From: Jannaschia aquimarina
GTDB lineage: Bacteria; Pseudomonadota; Alphaproteobacteria; Rhodobacterales; Rhodobacteraceae
NCBI RefSeq assembly: GCF_000877395.1
Contig: NZ_JYFE01000055.1
Coordinates: forward strand, 1 to 63,155
Direction: 5' to 3'
Length of the DNA stretch: 63,155 nt
The translations under genes and the position numbers were made by a program. Positions 32,449 through 37,889 of this stretch are shown here, one piece after another (the stretch's first letter is position 1; every line of letters starts with the position of its first letter). The notes below the pieces were generated by a model. That model was not told where the DNA came from. It worked only from the letters and a program-made list of their open reading frames with translations, and ran no database searches.

Positions 32449-33399
32449 TCAGCGTCCGCTCAACGCGCGGGTCTGGAGGATCAGGGGGTCGAGCATCTCC
32501 GGCGCCTTCGCGAAGAGCTGTGCTTCCTCGCGGGCCTGTTCGGCGATCTCGTCCAGCCGCGCTTCGGCGGCGGGCAACGCTTCGGTGAAGGCCGCCGCCG
32601 TGAGGTCCAGATCCTCGTCGCTGGGGTCTGCCCGGCAGAACGCAACGGAGATGTCCGGATCGGTGATGGCGATCGACGCGGGCAGCGTCAGGATGCCGTC
32701 GCGCAGATCCTCCTTGCCTCCCCCGCCCAGGGCGGGCAGGCCGCGCACATCGGCCACGTCGTCGCATCCGTGATAGAGCCGGCCCAACAGGCCGCCGAAG
32801 GTCCGCAGACGGCCGCTGCGGTCACCGAGGCAGGCGCAGATCTCGAACATCGACCCGGTATCTTCGCCCGCGATCCGCCACCAATCCTCGTAGCCCAGCG
32901 GTTGGCGTCTCAGCCGCCATTGCATGCACTCGGCCACGCCGAGCCGCTTGAGCAGTTCGGAAAAGAGCGTAATCGCCTGAAGGTCGTCGCCAAGTTGCAG
33001 ATAGCCTTCGGCCACGATGTAGCCCGACGTCATCAGCGCCGAAAGCTCGCCGAAGCGCGTGTGCATCGTCGCCCGGCCGCGGCGTTCGGGGGACCGGTCC
33101 ACGATGTCGTCGATCACCAGCGAGACGTTGTGGAAGAACTCGATCACCAGAGCCGACGTCATGATCTGCGGCGGGATCGGCCCGGGGCCGTGCGTCGCGC
33201 GATGGCAGGCGAAGATGGTGAGCGGGCGGAAATACTTGGACCCGCCGAGAAACTGCCACTCCAGCGCGTCGCGCATCTCGTCGTCGCAGGTCGCGACCCA
33301 GTCGGCGATCCGCTCGCGCAGTTCGGTCATCTCGTCCGAGAAGCCCAGCGTGTCGATGACGGACGCGCTGGTGGCGTCGATGCTGGCCGCGGAATTCAA
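32449..33399 (-). CDS. Polyprenyl synthetase family protein with altered catalytic positions
   Basis: This 316-residue all-helical protein is of the trans-isoprenyl diphosphate synthase family. The first aspartate-rich motif (Asp97-Asp98-x-x-Asp101, 'LVIDDIVDRSPERRGRATMH') and 'GGSKYFRPL' are intact. The second is Asp213-Asp214-x-x-Asp217 ('CDDVADV'). The usual Lys of the KT motif is Asp180 ('GEDTGSMF'), and the Lys of the EGK-TLP motif is Ile ('DGILTLP'). Activity may therefore be altered. The start is a TTG at 33399 that overlaps the previous stop (TTGA); an ATG at 33330 is an alternative. It is last of three minus-strand genes. Confidence 0.82.
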   Translation of the reverse strand: MNSAASIDATSASVIDTLGFSDEMTELRERIADWVATCDDEMRDALEWQFLGGSKYFRPLTIFACHRATHGPGPIPPQIMTSALVIEFFHNVSLVIDDIVDRSPERRGRATMHTRFGELSALMTSGYIVAEGYLQLGDDLQAITLFSELLKRLGVAECMQWRLRRQPLGYEDWWRIAGEDTGSMFEICACLGDRSGRLRTFGGLLGRLYHGCDDVADVRGLPALGGGGKEDLRDGILTLPASIAITDPDISVAFCRADPSDEDLDLTAAAFTEALPAAEARLDEIAEQAREEAQLFAKAPEMLDPLILQTRALSGR

Positions 33400-33917
33400 G
33401 GCTTCGGGGTCCAGCGGCGCTTGTGGGGCTGGTCGGGGTCGGACGGGGCCGCACCCGACGCGACGGCTTCCCCGAGCTTTTCGAGGTCCTGATCCAGACG
33501 ACGCGCCTCCTGCAGGGCGGTCTCGCCGACTTCGCGCAGAAAGCTGCGGACGGCTTCGGCGTTTGCGCGATCATCGCCAGGTGCCGTCCCTTGCGGGGTC
33601 GTCACGTTCGGCACCATTTCTGAAAGAGCCGCCTGATGGCGCGCGAAGACTTCCGTCAGGCGCTGCCCGTAGCGAAGGGAACTGCCCGAGGCGATGGCCG
33701 CCGCTTCGACCAGCGCCGCAGCCGGGCCGATGGCGGGCCGATCGCCTGTCCTGTCGGCGCCGCTCTGACCAGCCACCTGCTGCATCATTCTCGCATAGGC
33801 CTCGAGCATGCCCGCAAAGGCGTCCGCCAGCCCGGCCGGCCCTTCTGTGCCGCCACGATCCTGCTGTCCCCCGCCGTCCCGCGCGAACTGGAACGGGTCC
33901 GGTCCCGTGCTCGTCAT
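33396..33917 (-). CDS. Helical, phasin-like protein of unknown function
   Basis: I do not recognise a named family. The 173-residue protein has a Gly/Pro-rich N-terminus (about 1-28), then amphipathic helices ('LADAFAGMLEAYARMMQQVAG', 'SSLRYGQRLTEVFARHQAALSEM', and a third near 'RSFLREVGETALQEARRLDQDLEKL'), and a basic tail (HKRRWTPKP). The helix pattern resembles phasins or PHA-synthase-associated proteins, which coat granules. It lies 21 bases after the 103-residue gene and its stop overlaps the polyprenyl-synthetase start, so it is tightly linked to isoprenoid chemistry. Confidence 0.7.
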   Translation of the reverse strand: MTSTGPDPFQFARDGGGQQDRGGTEGPAGLADAFAGMLEAYARMMQQVAGQSGADRTGDRPAIGPAAALVEAAAIASGSSLRYGQRLTEVFARHQAALSEMVPNVTTPQGTAPGDDRANAEAVRSFLREVGETALQEARRLDQDLEKLGEAVASGAAPSDPDQPHKRRWTPKP

Positions 33918-33938
33918 CCTGTCCCCCCTCTGGCGGCT

Positions 33939-34250
33939 TCAGCCACCGTCCCGGTCGCGTGGATCGGGATCAAACCGCTCCAGATACGCCATGGTCCAGA
34001 GCGACGTCGCCCCGCGCAGGCCGTGCAGGTAGCTGCGCTGCGCCTCCAATGCCACGCGCATCGCCAGCTCGGCGGCGAGGCCCTTTTCGGCTTCGGGGGC
34101 CCGGATCACACCCGCTGCGGCCTTGGCGATATCCGCCGCTTCGCCCGCCGCCGCACGCAACGCGCGCTCTCCCGTCTCGGCGGTCGCGCCGATGGCGGCC
34201 ACGTAGCCGCGCAGGGCCACGGTTGCCATTCGGCTGTATTCCGACGTCAT
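33939..34250 (-). CDS. Small helical, phasin-like protein of unknown function
   Basis: The 103-residue protein is almost entirely helical and Ala-rich ('ALRGYVAAIGATAETGERALRAAAGEAADIAK' region described in parts), ending 'RSYLHGLRGATSLWTMAYLERFDPDPRDRDGG'-like with an acidic tail; no membrane helix is clear. It looks like a phasin or granule surface protein, but I cannot assign a family. It heads the minus-strand unit that ends with the polyprenyl synthetase and is divergent, by 61 bases, from the flavoprotein gene at 34312. Confidence 0.68.
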   Translation of the reverse strand: MTSEYSRMATVALRGYVAAIGATAETGERALRAAAGEAADIAKAAAGVIRAPEAEKGLAAELAMRVALEAQRSYLHGLRGATSLWTMAYLERFDPDPRDRDGG

Positions 34251-34311
34251 GGACAGGCCCCCGATGATCCGTGTTTAGCTGGCACCCTGACCTGCGGATG
34301 GGGGCTTGGCA

Positions 34312-36222
34312 ATGATCATCGAGGGCGAAGAGCGGTATCCGGACGCGGCCTCCACGCGGCCGCATGTCATCGTTGTCGGCGCCGGTGTCGCCGGCCTGAC
34401 GACCGCGCATCGCCTGCTGGAGCGGGGGCATGATATCACCCTGCTCGAAGCGGACTCGTTTCTGGGCGGCAAGCTGGGCGCGCATCAGGACTGGGACGAA
34501 CGCGATCATCCATCGGCCGGGATCGACCCGCTGCCGCCGATCACGGACGAGGCGGGGCCGTACGGGCGCCGGAAATGCGCCGTCTGCACCGACCCCTGTT
34601 GCGAGCGCAAGCGCGCCACCGACTGGCACGAGCATTGCTACCACATGTACCTCAACTGGTATCACAACTTCTGGGCGCTTATGCGGGACATCGGCGCGAT
34701 GGACCGCTTCGTGCCCATCACCGAGATCTATCACCAGCCTCCGGATCCCGATGCCGACATCCTCAGCGTCGTGAACCCCGGCTCGCCATGGACGGCGCTT
34801 CACAACGCGTTCGCGGGCGTGGACCCACCCGCCGACATGTTCCTGCAGAACCAGTCGATGCTGGACCTTCTGGCGAAGCCGGACAGCGAACGGCAGCGTC
34901 TCGACAAGATGAGCGTCGAAGCCGTGCTGCTGGAGCATGGCTACACCACCAAGGCATCCCGCGCGGCGAGCCACCGGGTGCTGGCGAAAGCCTTCGCTGC
35001 GCCGACCGCGATGGCTTCGGCGCGGACGTTCCAGTCGTTCAACAAGTACAGCGCCCGGCTTCCTGCGCCGACGATGTGGCTTCTGGACGGGGTCACCGCC
35101 GAAGCCATATTCACCCCTTGGCTCTGCAAGCTGGCGGAGCTTTCGGGGTCGTTTCGCATCGACGATGATGTCTTGGCGACCCGCCCCGTCTTCAGGGACG
35201 CGATCGAGCATTTCGCAGCCCTTGAGCGCGATGAGGAGGAGCGCAGGCGGATGCCGTCCCTGACGGTGATGCCGCTCCGCGCCTTGACGGGGATCGAGAT
35301 CGACCCGGATACCGGCGAGTTCCTCTTGCGCGTCGAACGTCAGGACCATTCGCGCGGCACCCGGAACCGCTTTGCCAGCAACGAGATCGACCCGGGGGGA
35401 GATGTCTGGCGCTTCGACGGTCAGGTCGTCCTGACGGTTCCGCCCCGTCAGCTCGCCGGGCTTGTCTTCACCCGTGCCGAAAGCGGCAAGGCCGACCCCG
35501 ATATCTGCCTCGTGGGGTCGGATCCGGCGCTCGCGAATGTCGCCCGGCTCGGCAGCGCGCCGATCTTCACGCTGGACATCTTCCTGCGCGAACCGCTGGA
35601 GCGGCCGTTGCCCCGCGGCATCATCAATCTGCTGGGGTCGAAATACGAGATGACCCTCTACGACAATACGGAGATGTGGAGGACGGAGGACGCGCCGGAT
35701 CCGAAGCCCCACATGATCAGCGTCTGCGCATCGGACGTGAAGACGCTGATGCCGTTCGTCGACAAGCCCGGCGGCGTGCAGGTGGTCATCGACAGGATGC
35801 TGGCCGAGATGCGGCGATACGTACGCTTCGATCCCGAAACCGATCTGCTGCATTGCCGGACCCATTTGCAGACGAATGCAGGCGAAGAGCTGTTCATCAA
35901 CGCGGTCGACACGTGGGAGTATCGTCCGCGTACGACGACCGAAATCCCGAACATGACACTCGCCGGAGATTTCGTGCAGACGGCCATCGACGTCGTCACC
36001 ATCGAGGCCGCCGCGATGAGCGGCGTGATGGCGGCCGAGGCGGTGCGCCGCAAGACGGGCCTCGGGCGGCCTGTCCCTGTCGTCGTTCCGGACACCATTC
36101 CGCGCGCCCAGATGTGGGCCGCCGCCATGGCATCGCGCCCCTTCGCCTACCTCGCCAAGGCCGCCTCGGAGGCGGATCACGGGATCCGCGGATCCTTCGT
36201 GACGGAGTATCCGGGCGGCTGA
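34312..36222 (+). CDS. Desaturase-like FAD oxidoreductase with a cysteine cluster
   Basis: The 636-residue flavoprotein has an N-terminal dinucleotide fold ('HVIVVGAGVAGLTTAHRLLE', Glu in 'TLLEADSFLGGK') and a C-terminal 'MTLAGDFVQTAIDVVTIEAAAMSG', as in carotene desaturases and hydroxysqualene dehydroxylase (HpnE). Unusually, a cluster follows the FAD motif: Cys89, Cys92, Cys96, Cys97 and Cys109 ('KCAVCTDPCCERK', then 'HEHCYH'), which could hold zinc or iron-sulphur. The ATG at 34312 is used; a TTG six bases earlier is in frame. Its 3' end overlaps the convergent ADC-like gene by 46 bases. The isoprenoid context suggests a terpenoid substrate; this is inference. Confidence 0.8.
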   Translation: MIIEGEERYPDAASTRPHVIVVGAGVAGLTTAHRLLERGHDITLLEADSFLGGKLGAHQDWDERDHPSAGIDPLPPITDEAGPYGRRKCAVCTDPCCERKRATDWHEHCYHMYLNWYHNFWALMRDIGAMDRFVPITEIYHQPPDPDADILSVVNPGSPWTALHNAFAGVDPPADMFLQNQSMLDLLAKPDSERQRLDKMSVEAVLLEHGYTTKASRAASHRVLAKAFAAPTAMASARTFQSFNKYSARLPAPTMWLLDGVTAEAIFTPWLCKLAELSGSFRIDDDVLATRPVFRDAIEHFAALERDEEERRRMPSLTVMPLRALTGIEIDPDTGEFLLRVERQDHSRGTRNRFASNEIDPGGDVWRFDGQVVLTVPPRQLAGLVFTRAESGKADPDICLVGSDPALANVARLGSAPIFTLDIFLREPLERPLPRGIINLLGSKYEMTLYDNTEMWRTEDAPDPKPHMISVCASDVKTLMPFVDKPGGVQVVIDRMLAEMRRYVRFDPETDLLHCRTHLQTNAGEELFINAVDTWEYRPRTTTEIPNMTLAGDFVQTAIDVVTIEAAAMSGVMAAEAVRRKTGLGRPVPVVVPDTIPRAQMWAAAMASRPFAYLAKAASEADHGIRGSFVTEYPGG

Positions 36223-37517
36223 CCCGCAACCGTAACCGGCTCGGCCAACGTGCAGGTCATGCGCTCGGTCCAGCCGTTCGCCGCGGGTTTCCGGCGGTGC
36301 AGATCCAGGCTCCGCAACGTGTCGCAAAGGCACGCCATGCCGCCTGCGCAAAGACAGCCGGCCGCAATGCCCGCCGCGCGGTCCGCCGGCAGGGAAAGGG
36401 TCACATCGCCTCCGTACTGCATCCCCTCGCCGGCCCCGCTCCGGGTCAGCAGGGCACGGCAGGCCTCGGTCGGCCCTGCAGGGGGGCCATGCGGCTGCGT
36501 CGTCGAGTAGACCAGCGCCGGGACCCGATCACTGCGCCCGGTCCCGAACCGCGGAAAGCCGAGTTGCAGCTTGTCTCGGCGCGACACGGCCAGTGCCTGG
36601 GCCGCCCCCAGCCCGAAGCCGACCCGGTCCGCCCCGTAGGCCACATCGAGGCGCGAGCCGGGCGGCAGGGTCCGGTTGTCGTGCAGGTCCTTGCGAATGC
36701 CCCAGATCTGGCGCGCCGTGGCCAGCGAGTAGGGATCGGTCACGATCAGACGAAGGAAGATCTGGCCCGGATCGGGGAAGCGCGTCCCGCGCGGCGAGAC
36801 GGTCAATGTGAGCCCGATCTCCTGCGTGACGCCGAAATCGGAGGCGCGGTAATCCGAGGCGACCAGAGAGACCATCACGCCGCCCCGGCCGACGTCGACA
36901 GGCGCAAGGGTGTCGATCGCCTCCTCCGCCAGGTGGCCGCTGTTGCAGGCTTCGGACATCAGGCGGTCCGCGTCCGCTCTGGACACGAACCACGAGGCCC
37001 AGGCCTGCGACGCATCACGGACGCGGGCGGGCAGCAGAAAGGGTGCGCGTGGGCCGGTATCCGGCACCGACAAGTCAGCCCCGGCGGACTCGAAGCCCGC
37101 GTCCCGCGCAAGCGCGCGGCGCTGACTCTCTGCAAGCGAGGGGTCGACCACCACTGCGGTGACGCTCGGCGCGGGGTCGGTGCCGGAGAGCGCCCGTTCG
37201 ACCATGTCATGCGTGGGTGAGGTCACGGTGTCGAACTCGTCCACGGCGACCCCGATCGCAGAGGGCGGGACAGCCAGCATTTCGGTCGCCAGACGCGCAT
37301 AGTCCCGCGCGACCGACCGGGCCATCTGCGCGGTGCCCTCGTGCCCGAGCGTCCCCAGCACCAGGCCATCGGCAATCCGCGCCGCCGTCCCGCCGGCGAG
37401 GTCCAGCGGGCGGGATATCATCTGTTCGCCAAGCCGCATCCAGGCGCGATAAAGACGGTAGGTGTCGTCGGAGGTGACACGCTTCCGCTCCAGTTCCGAG
37501 GGATCGTGTTCGATCAT
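36177..37517 (-). CDS. Two-part protein: helical N-terminus and acetoacetate-decarboxylase-like C-terminus
   Basis: The 446-residue protein has a helical first part (about 1-110; 'TYRLYRAWMRLGEQM', 'ARDYARLATEML'), again phasin-like, and a second part that resembles acetoacetate decarboxylase: 'VRDASQAWASWFV', 'MVSLVASDYRASDFGVTQEIGL' and 'DPYSLATARQIWGIRKDLHDN'. The ADC Schiff-base lysine aligns by eye with Lys276; the neighbouring Lys that lowers its pKa in ADC is Asp277 here. A Cys-rich stretch ('GCLCAGGMACLC') lies near the C-terminus. The start at 37517 has a GGGGAG site; an upstream in-frame extension is low quality. The function is unknown. Confidence 0.75.
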   Translation of the reverse strand: MIEHDPSELERKRVTSDDTYRLYRAWMRLGEQMISRPLDLAGGTAARIADGLVLGTLGHEGTAQMARSVARDYARLATEMLAVPPSAIGVAVDEFDTVTSPTHDMVERALSGTDPAPSVTAVVVDPSLAESQRRALARDAGFESAGADLSVPDTGPRAPFLLPARVRDASQAWASWFVSRADADRLMSEACNSGHLAEEAIDTLAPVDVGRGGVMVSLVASDYRASDFGVTQEIGLTLTVSPRGTRFPDPGQIFLRLIVTDPYSLATARQIWGIRKDLHDNRTLPPGSRLDVAYGADRVGFGLGAAQALAVSRRDKLQLGFPRFGTGRSDRVPALVYSTTQPHGPPAGPTEACRALLTRSGAGEGMQYGGDVTLSLPADRAAGIAAGCLCAGGMACLCDTLRSLDLHRRKPAANGWTERMTCTLAEPVTVAGQPPGYSVTKDPRIP

Positions 37518-37727
37518 CGGACATCTCCCCTGCGCCGACGGACGCTGCCTCCTGCCCTGGGTGATAGGCGTGTCACCCGGATCCGCCAAGAGCAGGCGGG
37601 AGGACCGTGCCGCAAACCAACTCTTCACGAATGTGCGCGGCGACACAGCCCCGCGCTGCGGCGGATGGCATCATATCTGCACCAAAGTATCCGGATCCGT
37701 TCGATCCAGTTAACGAGGAGTAGCGTC

Positions 37728-37889
37728 ATGTCCAACAATCTTGATCGTTTCGCCGTCAGCATCCGCACCGCCATCCGGGGGCTGGTCTGCACCGGGTTCG
37801 TCGCCTCTTGGGCGGTCAGTTTTCCCAGCCTTCAATTCCCTGAGAACTGGCCCCCGGAACCGCCGGTCACATCGCCGAAATCGCGCTAG
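37728..37889 (+). CDS. Small single-helix membrane protein, unknown
   Basis: A 53-residue frame starts at an ATG nine bases after a strong AGGAG site. It has a short polar N-terminus, one hydrophobic segment (about 18-35, 'LVCTGFVASWAVSF') and a Pro-rich tail (ENWPPEPPVTSPKSR). It is divergent from the ADC-like gene by 210 bases, in which I see no clear promoter. No family is recognised; the ribosome site and start are the main support. Confidence 0.5.
   Translation: MSNNLDRFAVSIRTAIRGLVCTGFVASWAVSFPSLQFPENWPPEPPVTSPKSR

What the first reader, a model, noticed from the sequence alone, without database searches (positions are those of the whole stretch)
32449..37889. Unexplained island: altered polyprenyl synthetase, phasin-like proteins, Cys-cluster desaturase and ADC-like protein
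Six adjacent genes combine elements I do not know as a described system. They are a polyprenyl-synthetase homologue, two small helical proteins that look like granule-surface phasins, a carotene-desaturase/HpnE-like flavoprotein with an added Cys cluster, a protein joining a helical (again phasin-like) part to an acetoacetate-decarboxylase-like domain, and a 53-residue membrane peptide. Three are coupled on the minus strand, one is divergent from them by 61 bases, and the ADC-like gene overlaps it tail to tail. Three separate proteins with similar helical segments suggest assembly on a shared lipid or granule surface. Isoprenoid or ketone chemistry in such a compartment is inference.
Basis: partly seen in the sequence, partly recalled or inferred. 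Interest (0 to 1): 0.8.

Follow-up and report, generated by a model that had tools for sequence, protein, structure and literature searches.

The report
Rare conserved isoprenoid-processing gene set
Five neighbouring bacterial genes, with a sixth signalling gene elsewhere in the genome, form a rare and apparently undescribed set that is kept together in scattered proteobacteria and probably makes or modifies an isoprenoid lipid.

Summary
The island is real, except for the 53-residue ORF, which matched no related locus. Five genes recur together in Palleronia, Allosediminivita, Acidiphilium, Bradyrhizobium and MAGs: an altered prenyl synthase (IDS), P173, P103, an HpnE/phytoene-desaturase-like flavoprotein, and an ADC-fold protein. 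In 15 loci with the flavoprotein, IDS lies nearby in 13, ADC in 12 and P173 in 12. The set is rare: the flavoprotein is in 2 of 394 genomes of the family, own included. IDS keeps both Asp-rich motifs and the IPP-site Lys/Arg in 14 of 14 sequences, but two lysines aligned with those that bind allylic diphosphate are always replaced. Phasin homology was not established. The Cys cluster is in 8 of 16 flavoproteins, so it is not core. Best reading: a signal-controlled isoprenoid-lipid module in which the IDS-fold enzyme builds or primes a prenyl chain, the flavoprotein changes its oxidation state, and the ADC-fold protein acts on the oxidised product. Gene coupling is shown; the chemistry is inferred. 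My searches found no description in print.

The parts
32449..33399 (-). IDS: trans-prenyl-synthase-fold protein, 316 aa; both DDxxD motifs kept, two allylic-diphosphate lysines replaced
   Evidence: PF00348 E 2.1e-27; PDB profile search E 1.9e-26; motif counts in 14 sequences
33396..33917 (-). P173: helical protein, overlaps IDS by 4 nt, no known family
   Evidence: homologues near the flavoprotein in 12 of 15 loci; predicted helices 27-51, 65-104, 113-156
33939..34250 (-). P103: small, probably helical protein, no known family
   Evidence: BLAST match in 2 of 15 loci; an alignable ORF at the same place in 11 of 15
34306..36222 (+). Flavoprotein related to HpnE and phytoene/zeta-carotene desaturases, 638 aa (636 if it starts at the ATG at 34312), with a lineage-specific Cys cluster
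   Evidence: found in 15 loci
36177..37517 (-). ADC-fold protein, 446 aa, with a helical N-terminal part and a C-terminal CxC...CxC
   Evidence: weak PF06314; alignment with an ADC structure at WGxxK; homologues in 12 of 15 loci

Best explanation
The five window genes and a cyclase gene on another contig of the same genome form one functional unit, a signal-controlled isoprenoid-lipid module. Proposed steps: (1) the cyclase-AAA protein senses a signal and, by ATP-driven switching or a cyclic nucleotide, turns the module on. (2) The IDS-fold enzyme, translationally coupled to P173 as a possible helical partner subunit, joins IPP to a prenyl donor held through metals and arginine rather than the usual lysines, so that donor or reaction is probably not canonical. 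(3) The HpnE/desaturase-like flavoprotein desaturates or dehydroxylates the chain. (4) The ADC-fold protein acts on an oxidised (keto or enone) form through its lysine, by isomerisation or decarboxylation, or only binds it where the lysine is missing. P103 and the ADC N-terminus may hold the parts together. Shown: the gene set, its linkage, its co-occurrence when unlinked, and motif conservation. Inferred: every chemical step, complex formation and the signal.
For: Same five genes in the same order in Allosediminivita. In 15 loci: IDS 13, ADC 12, P173 12, cyclase 13. Members missing from a locus occur elsewhere in the genome: own cyclase, ADC and cyclase of two Acidiphilium. IDS belongs to PF00348 and its metal and IPP residues are kept in 14 of 14. 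The flavoprotein's nearest solved relative by sequence is phytoene desaturase, E 3.3e-21. A geranylgeranyl-reductase-like gene accompanies the set in 2 loci. An ADC-family enzyme, CLA-DC, isomerises a keto fatty acid (passage of PMC11719350). cNMP-binding regulators lie near the set in 3 loci. Distance matrices of the six families correlate, r 0.80-0.98.
Against: No substrate, product or interaction was tested. The replaced lysines could mean loss of prenyl-synthase activity. The ADC lysine is absent in 2 of 12. The cyclase's transition-state Asn position is Asn in only 2 of 11. IDS is missing from L019 and L023, whose contigs are short. No ADC was found in the genome of L021. The distance correlation is partly common descent; no housekeeping control was run.
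Confidence: 0.47

Rival explanations
1. Granule or lipid-body model of the first reader: P173, P103 and the ADC N-terminus are phasin-like surface proteins of a lipid or polyester granule on which the enzymes sit.
For: P173 is predicted as long helices. P103 and the ADC N-terminus score against phasins above 120 of 120 and 119 of 120 control profiles, but over only 18 and 37 columns.
Against: No phasin family in Pfam scans of 13 and 12 members; hhalign probabilities 0.2-0.5%; P173, the most phasin-like in look, scores no better than controls (57 of 120 reach it); the recognisable phasin of the genome is on another contig.
Confidence: 0.14
2. A stress or conflict system: the cyclase-AAA protein is a sensor whose triggering makes the enzymes alter the cell's own isoprenoid lipids or quinones, for protection or to stop growth.
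For: Large AAA sensor-like gene near the set in 13 of 15 loci; scattered, rare distribution; the cyclase domain resembles Pycsar cyclases in PADLOC, a generic match.
Against: No PADLOC hit for IDS, P173, P103 or ADC; no flavoprotein match in PLSDB plasmids; GC content is flat across the island; at least three enzymes is much for a simple effector.
Confidence: 0.14
3. The IDS homologue has lost catalysis and binds a prenyl diphosphate as a sensor or scaffold; the chemistry is done only by the flavoprotein and the ADC-fold protein, on a lipid that need not be an isoprenoid.
For: The residues aligned with two diphosphate lysines are Asp and Gly in 14 of 14; ADC relatives can act on fatty acids.
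Against: All six motif Asp, the Thr after the replaced Lys, and the IPP-site residues are kept in 14 of 14, and IDS is the most conserved member, 48-82% identity to the window, which is not what loss of function usually leaves.
Confidence: 0.18
4. Unrelated neighbours with separate, known roles.
For: Each enzyme fold is common, and P103 is recognisable by BLAST only in 2 of 15 loci.
Against: The set recurs in distant families, and members missing from a locus are found elsewhere in the same genome.
Confidence: 0.02

Closest known systems
HpnE hydroxysqualene dehydroxylase and phytoene/zeta-carotene desaturases (flavoprotein)
   Same: Flavin amine-oxidoreductase family; HpnE is the best NCBIfam match (E 2.2e-26) and phytoene desaturase the best solved relative by sequence.
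   Different: HpnE score far below its cut-off (93 against 283 bits); invariant HEH[CS]YHMYLNW stretch, and in 8 of 16 an added Cys pair. No squalene or phytoene synthase gene was seen among the genes of the set.
trans-prenyl diphosphate synthases (solanesyl, farnesyl, nonaprenyl)
   Same: Fold family, two DDxxD motifs, IPP-site Lys/Arg.
   Different: Lys of KT[AG] is Asp and Lys of LGK is Gly in 14 of 14; coupled to a helical protein of unknown family.
MoeN5, a trans-prenyl-synthase-like prenyltransferase of moenomycin biosynthesis
   Same: Precedent for this fold joining a prenyl diphosphate to a non-standard acceptor (passage of PMC7839719).
   Different: No sequence comparison with MoeN5 was made here; the partner genes recalled for moenomycin (glycosyltransferases) were not seen.
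CLA-DC, ADC-family enoyl isomerase of gut lactobacilli
   Same: ADC family, acts on a lipid together with flavoenzymes (passage of PMC11719350).
   Different: Substrate is a fatty acid; sequences were not compared here.
Heteromeric prenyl synthases with a non-catalytic small subunit
   Same: A synthase gene coupled to a smaller helical partner (concept from passages of PMC7839719).
   Different: P173 matches no such subunit in the solved-structure search.

Membership tests
trans-prenyl diphosphate synthase (PF00348) | fold family match | tested here: met
   E 2.1e-27, 96.4 bits against a cut-off of 27; PDB profile search
trans-prenyl diphosphate synthase (PF00348) | two Asp-rich metal motifs | tested here: met
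   DDxxD twice in 14 of 14
trans-prenyl diphosphate synthase (PF00348) | Lys equivalent to human Lys200 and Lys257, which hold the allylic diphosphate | tested here: not met
   Asp and Gly in 14 of 14; roles from passages of PMC7815940; position mapping and recall
trans-prenyl diphosphate synthase (PF00348) | chain-elongation activity | not testable with these tools
   needs an enzyme assay
HpnE hydroxysqualene dehydroxylase | score over the family cut-off | tested here: not met
   93.2 bits against 283.05
Acetoacetate decarboxylase (PF06314) | score over the Pfam cut-off (window protein) | tested here: not met
   14.1 bits against 29.8; 4 of 12 members match at E <= 1, best 2.9e-6
Acetoacetate decarboxylase (PF06314) | Schiff-base Lys (role recalled) | tested here: inconclusive
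   Lys in 10 of 12; Ala in L013, Ser in L020; alignment to the ADC structure 3bgt has E 0.05
Phasin (PF09361 and others) | family match of P173 or P103 | tested here: not met
   no phasin among Pfam hits of 13 and 12 members; hhalign 0.2-0.5%
Class III nucleotide cyclase (partner gene) | two metal Asp and transition-state Arg (roles recalled) | tested here: met
   11 of 11 aligned; PF00211 in 4 of 4 scanned
Class III nucleotide cyclase (partner gene) | transition-state Asn (role recalled) | tested here: not met
   Asn in 2 of 11, Ser in the window's genome
Family 2 encapsulin system | encapsulin shell gene in the genome | tested here: inconclusive
   PF19307 in 0 of 9 genomes, but no control genome rang either
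Family 2 encapsulin system | IDS over the cut-off of the encapsulin cargo polyprenyl transferase | tested here: not met
   72.2 bits against 450

The most novel reading that the evidence does not exclude
A categorically new multi-enzyme machine: a prenyl-synthase-fold enzyme rebuilt to use a donor other than an ordinary allylic diphosphate works in a complex with a desaturase-like flavoprotein and an ADC-fold lyase or isomerase. Two new helical protein families assemble it, and an AAA protein with a partly degenerate cyclase domain switches it, giving an isoprenoid-derived lipid or signal of unknown type.
Probability: 0.22. Interest if true: 0.85.

Novelty: new variant of a known kind. Interest (0 to 1): 0.6.

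Why it matters
It would add an undescribed isoprenoid pathway, with its own sensor, to proteobacteria that include named isolates (Palleronia, Acidiphilium, Bradyrhizobium), so a knock-out and lipid comparison could reveal the product. It also offers a natural prenyl-synthase family in which two allylic-diphosphate lysines are always replaced while the metal and IPP sites are kept, a ready test of what that fold can do.

Tried and rejected
Phasin homology: tested by Pfam and by profile comparison; not established. Against my reading, P103 and the ADC N-terminus scored against phasins above 120 and 119 of 120 controls, but over 18 and 37 columns and with hhalign probabilities of 0.5 and 0.3%. 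The reversed-and-rotated controls resemble each other, so they are not 60 independent trials.

P53: no match in the related loci fetched; not searched further. Mobile origin: no flavoprotein match in PLSDB at E 1e-20 and no GC anomaly; an empty site in related species was not looked for. Encapsulin: not settled, the search had no positive control. Defence systems: only generic cyclase and FAD-domain hits.

Rows left out before counts: the cyclase alignment holds 11 of 16 known by then; L013, L014 and L019 (my gene caller had the wrong frame) and the two Acidiphilium copies were left out. The ADC alignment holds 12; the L019 fragment and the two Acidiphilium copies, found later, were left out. 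score only the best 3-5 candidates of each genome (fewer where a genome gave fewer), and the scan used two short motifs, so relatives lacking them would be missed.

Literature, 10 searches: looked for the set (45 and 95: no paper; 47: two, judged off-topic from the listing); 46, 74 and 83 for related kinds; 73, 76, 77 and 82 for residues and precedents. Passages only were seen of PMC7839719, PMC11719350, PMC7159879, PMC7815940 and PMC8195603; the fourth and fifth calls of that kind gave hFPPS residues and nothing on the set, and PMC7159879 nothing on isoprenoids.
Full report
Observation. IDS and P173 overlap by 4 nt; P103 and the flavoprotein gene diverge; the flavoprotein and ADC genes overlap tail to tail by 46 nt. 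Family scans give PF00348 for IDS, an amine-oxidoreductase/HpnE-type flavoprotein, a weak ADC match, and nothing convincing for P173, P103 and P53. P53 matches none of the related loci, so I leave it out.

Distribution. The flavoprotein is rare: 1 of 60 relatives (the own genome; none of the 19 other genomes of the genus that were searched), 2 of 394 genomes of the family (own and G301), 1 of 385 of the class (own) and 1 of 398 of the phylum (own). IDS at E 1e-60 is in 1 of 385 of the class (own).

Gene set. In these 15 loci IDS is nearby in 13 (not L019 and L023, on contigs of 4.9 and 10.4 kb), ADC in 12 (a fragment in L019), and P173 in 12 (11 by tblastn, L021 by blastp clustering). An ORF of about 100-115 aa at the P103 position aligns with P103 in 11, but only 2 of them match it by BLAST. 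In Allosediminivita all five genes have the same order and orientation (identities IDS 77, P173 45, P103 45, flavoprotein 55, ADC 47%). The tail-to-tail overlap of flavoprotein and ADC genes recurs in 6 of the 11 other loci with a full ADC gene (L010, L013, L014, L020, L023, L024); in the other 5 the genes end 6-48 nt apart.

The sixth gene. A protein of about 1,050-1,170 aa with a class III cyclase domain and an AAA_16 ATPase is nearby in 13 of 15 loci. Of four scanned, all have these two domains, three a SAM domain and two TPR matches. The window lacks it, but the genome has one close homologue, 52% identical to that of Allosediminivita and 62% to that of Palleronia, at G000:C41:243431-246541. 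The two Acidiphilium loci lack both this gene and ADC, yet both genomes hold them about 16 kb apart on another contig. No ADC was found in the genome of L021. Distance matrices of the six families correlate with r 0.80-0.98, the unlinked cyclase included; this is partly shared ancestry, and no housekeeping control was run.

IDS. The profile matches solanesyl, farnesyl and nonaprenyl diphosphate synthases. In 14 of 14 sequences both DDxxD motifs, K55, R58, R106, R107 and T181 are kept. In all 14 the residue aligned with the Lys of KT[AG] is Asp, and that aligned with the Lys of LGK is Gly. In human FPPS, Arg112, Lys200 and Lys257 hold the allylic diphosphate, and Lys57, Arg60 and Arg113 hold IPP (passages of PMC7815940); the mapping between the numberings rests and recall. 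So the IPP and metal sites look intact and the allylic site looks rebuilt. IDS is also the most conserved member of the set (48-82% identity to the window).

Flavoprotein. The best solved relative by sequence is phytoene desaturase. Three His of the HEH[CS]YHMYLNW stretch are invariant in 16 of 16. The Cys pair C91/C94 is present in 8 of 16 (window, L010-L014, L020, L024) and absent in the four Bradyrhizobium, L019, L021, L022 and L023, so it is a lineage feature.

ADC-fold protein. Similarity to ADC is weak for the window protein (E 0.034); 4 of 12 members match, the best at 2.9e-6. The profile aligns WGxxK with WGFPKK of an ADC structure at E 0.05. The first Lys is present in 10 of 12 and the second in none; Arg224, Asp227, Glu233 and Trp416 are invariant; the four Cys of a C-terminal CxC...CxC are each kept in 10-11 of 12. 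A precedent for a lipid role is CLA-DC, an ADC-family enzyme that moves a double bond in a keto fatty acid (passage of PMC11719350).

Small helical proteins. P173 is predicted as long helices (27-51, 65-104, 113-156; mean pLDDT 71.0, pTM 0.51, residues 1-25 and 53-61 below 50). P173 matches no solved small subunit of a heteromeric synthase. Phasin homology was not established. P103 and the ADC N-terminus align over 82 columns with a score (17.0) above all 120 control scores (maximum 15.6), though hhalign's probability is 0.6-1.5%; both also score against phasins above nearly all controls, over 18 and 37 columns. A distant relation is possible, not shown. P173 resembles neither.

Cyclase. The metal-binding Asp and the Arg are kept in 11 of 11, but the transition-state Asn position is Asn in only 2 of 11 (roles recalled). 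Activity may be reduced, or the domain may be a sensor. cNMP-binding proteins lie near the set in 3 loci: L010 (two), L013, and L024, where one ends the run 21 nt beyond the cyclase gene (that of L024 by 49% identity to one of L010). Similar proteins were not found in the window, and I saw none among the ORFs of 170 aa or more listed within about 4-5 kb of the own cyclase. A geranylgeranyl-reductase-like flavoprotein gene lies directly downstream of IDS in L020 and beyond the cyclase in L013; its GGR domain match is just under Pfam's cut-off (25.0 against 27 bits).

Interpretation. Linkage, co-occurrence where linkage is lost, and conserved motifs point to one functional unit. IDS and the flavoprotein, and the optional reductase, belong to families whose known members act on isoprenoids; the ADC family has a lipid-acting member. 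I therefore favour a regulated isoprenoid-lipid module (0.47). Substrates, product, complex and trigger are inferred. No description of the set was found in the searches; that library lacks most subscription journals.

Noticed in passing
window 37728-37889: The 53-aa ORF of the finding lies between ADC and a LysE-type gene; it matched none of the related loci and may not be a gene.
   Followed up: partly
L060:7390-10551 (G000:C41): The window genome's cyclase homologue sits alone between a gene that reads like a penicillin acylase and one that reads like hemN (by eye), so the set is split in this genome.
   Followed up: partly
L013:2523-4040 and L020:1927-3420: Geranylgeranyl-reductase-like flavoprotein genes, 59% identical to each other, accompany the set in two MAGs, the same two whose ADC protein lacks the lysine.
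   Followed up: partly
L010:12968-13684, L010:13828-14511, L013:1690-2535, L024:4234-4947: Crp-type or other cNMP-binding proteins lie near the set in three loci, which could close a cyclic-nucleotide circuit with the cyclase.
   Followed up: partly
L022:12293-14560: In the Betaproteobacteria MAG the ADC homologue is 755 aa long, with a large N-terminal extension.
   Followed up: no
L036:5455-9996 (G793:C1): In Acidiphilium the stand-alone ADC gene follows a large gene that reads like a GGDEF-EAL (cyclic-di-GMP) protein (by eye).
   Followed up: no
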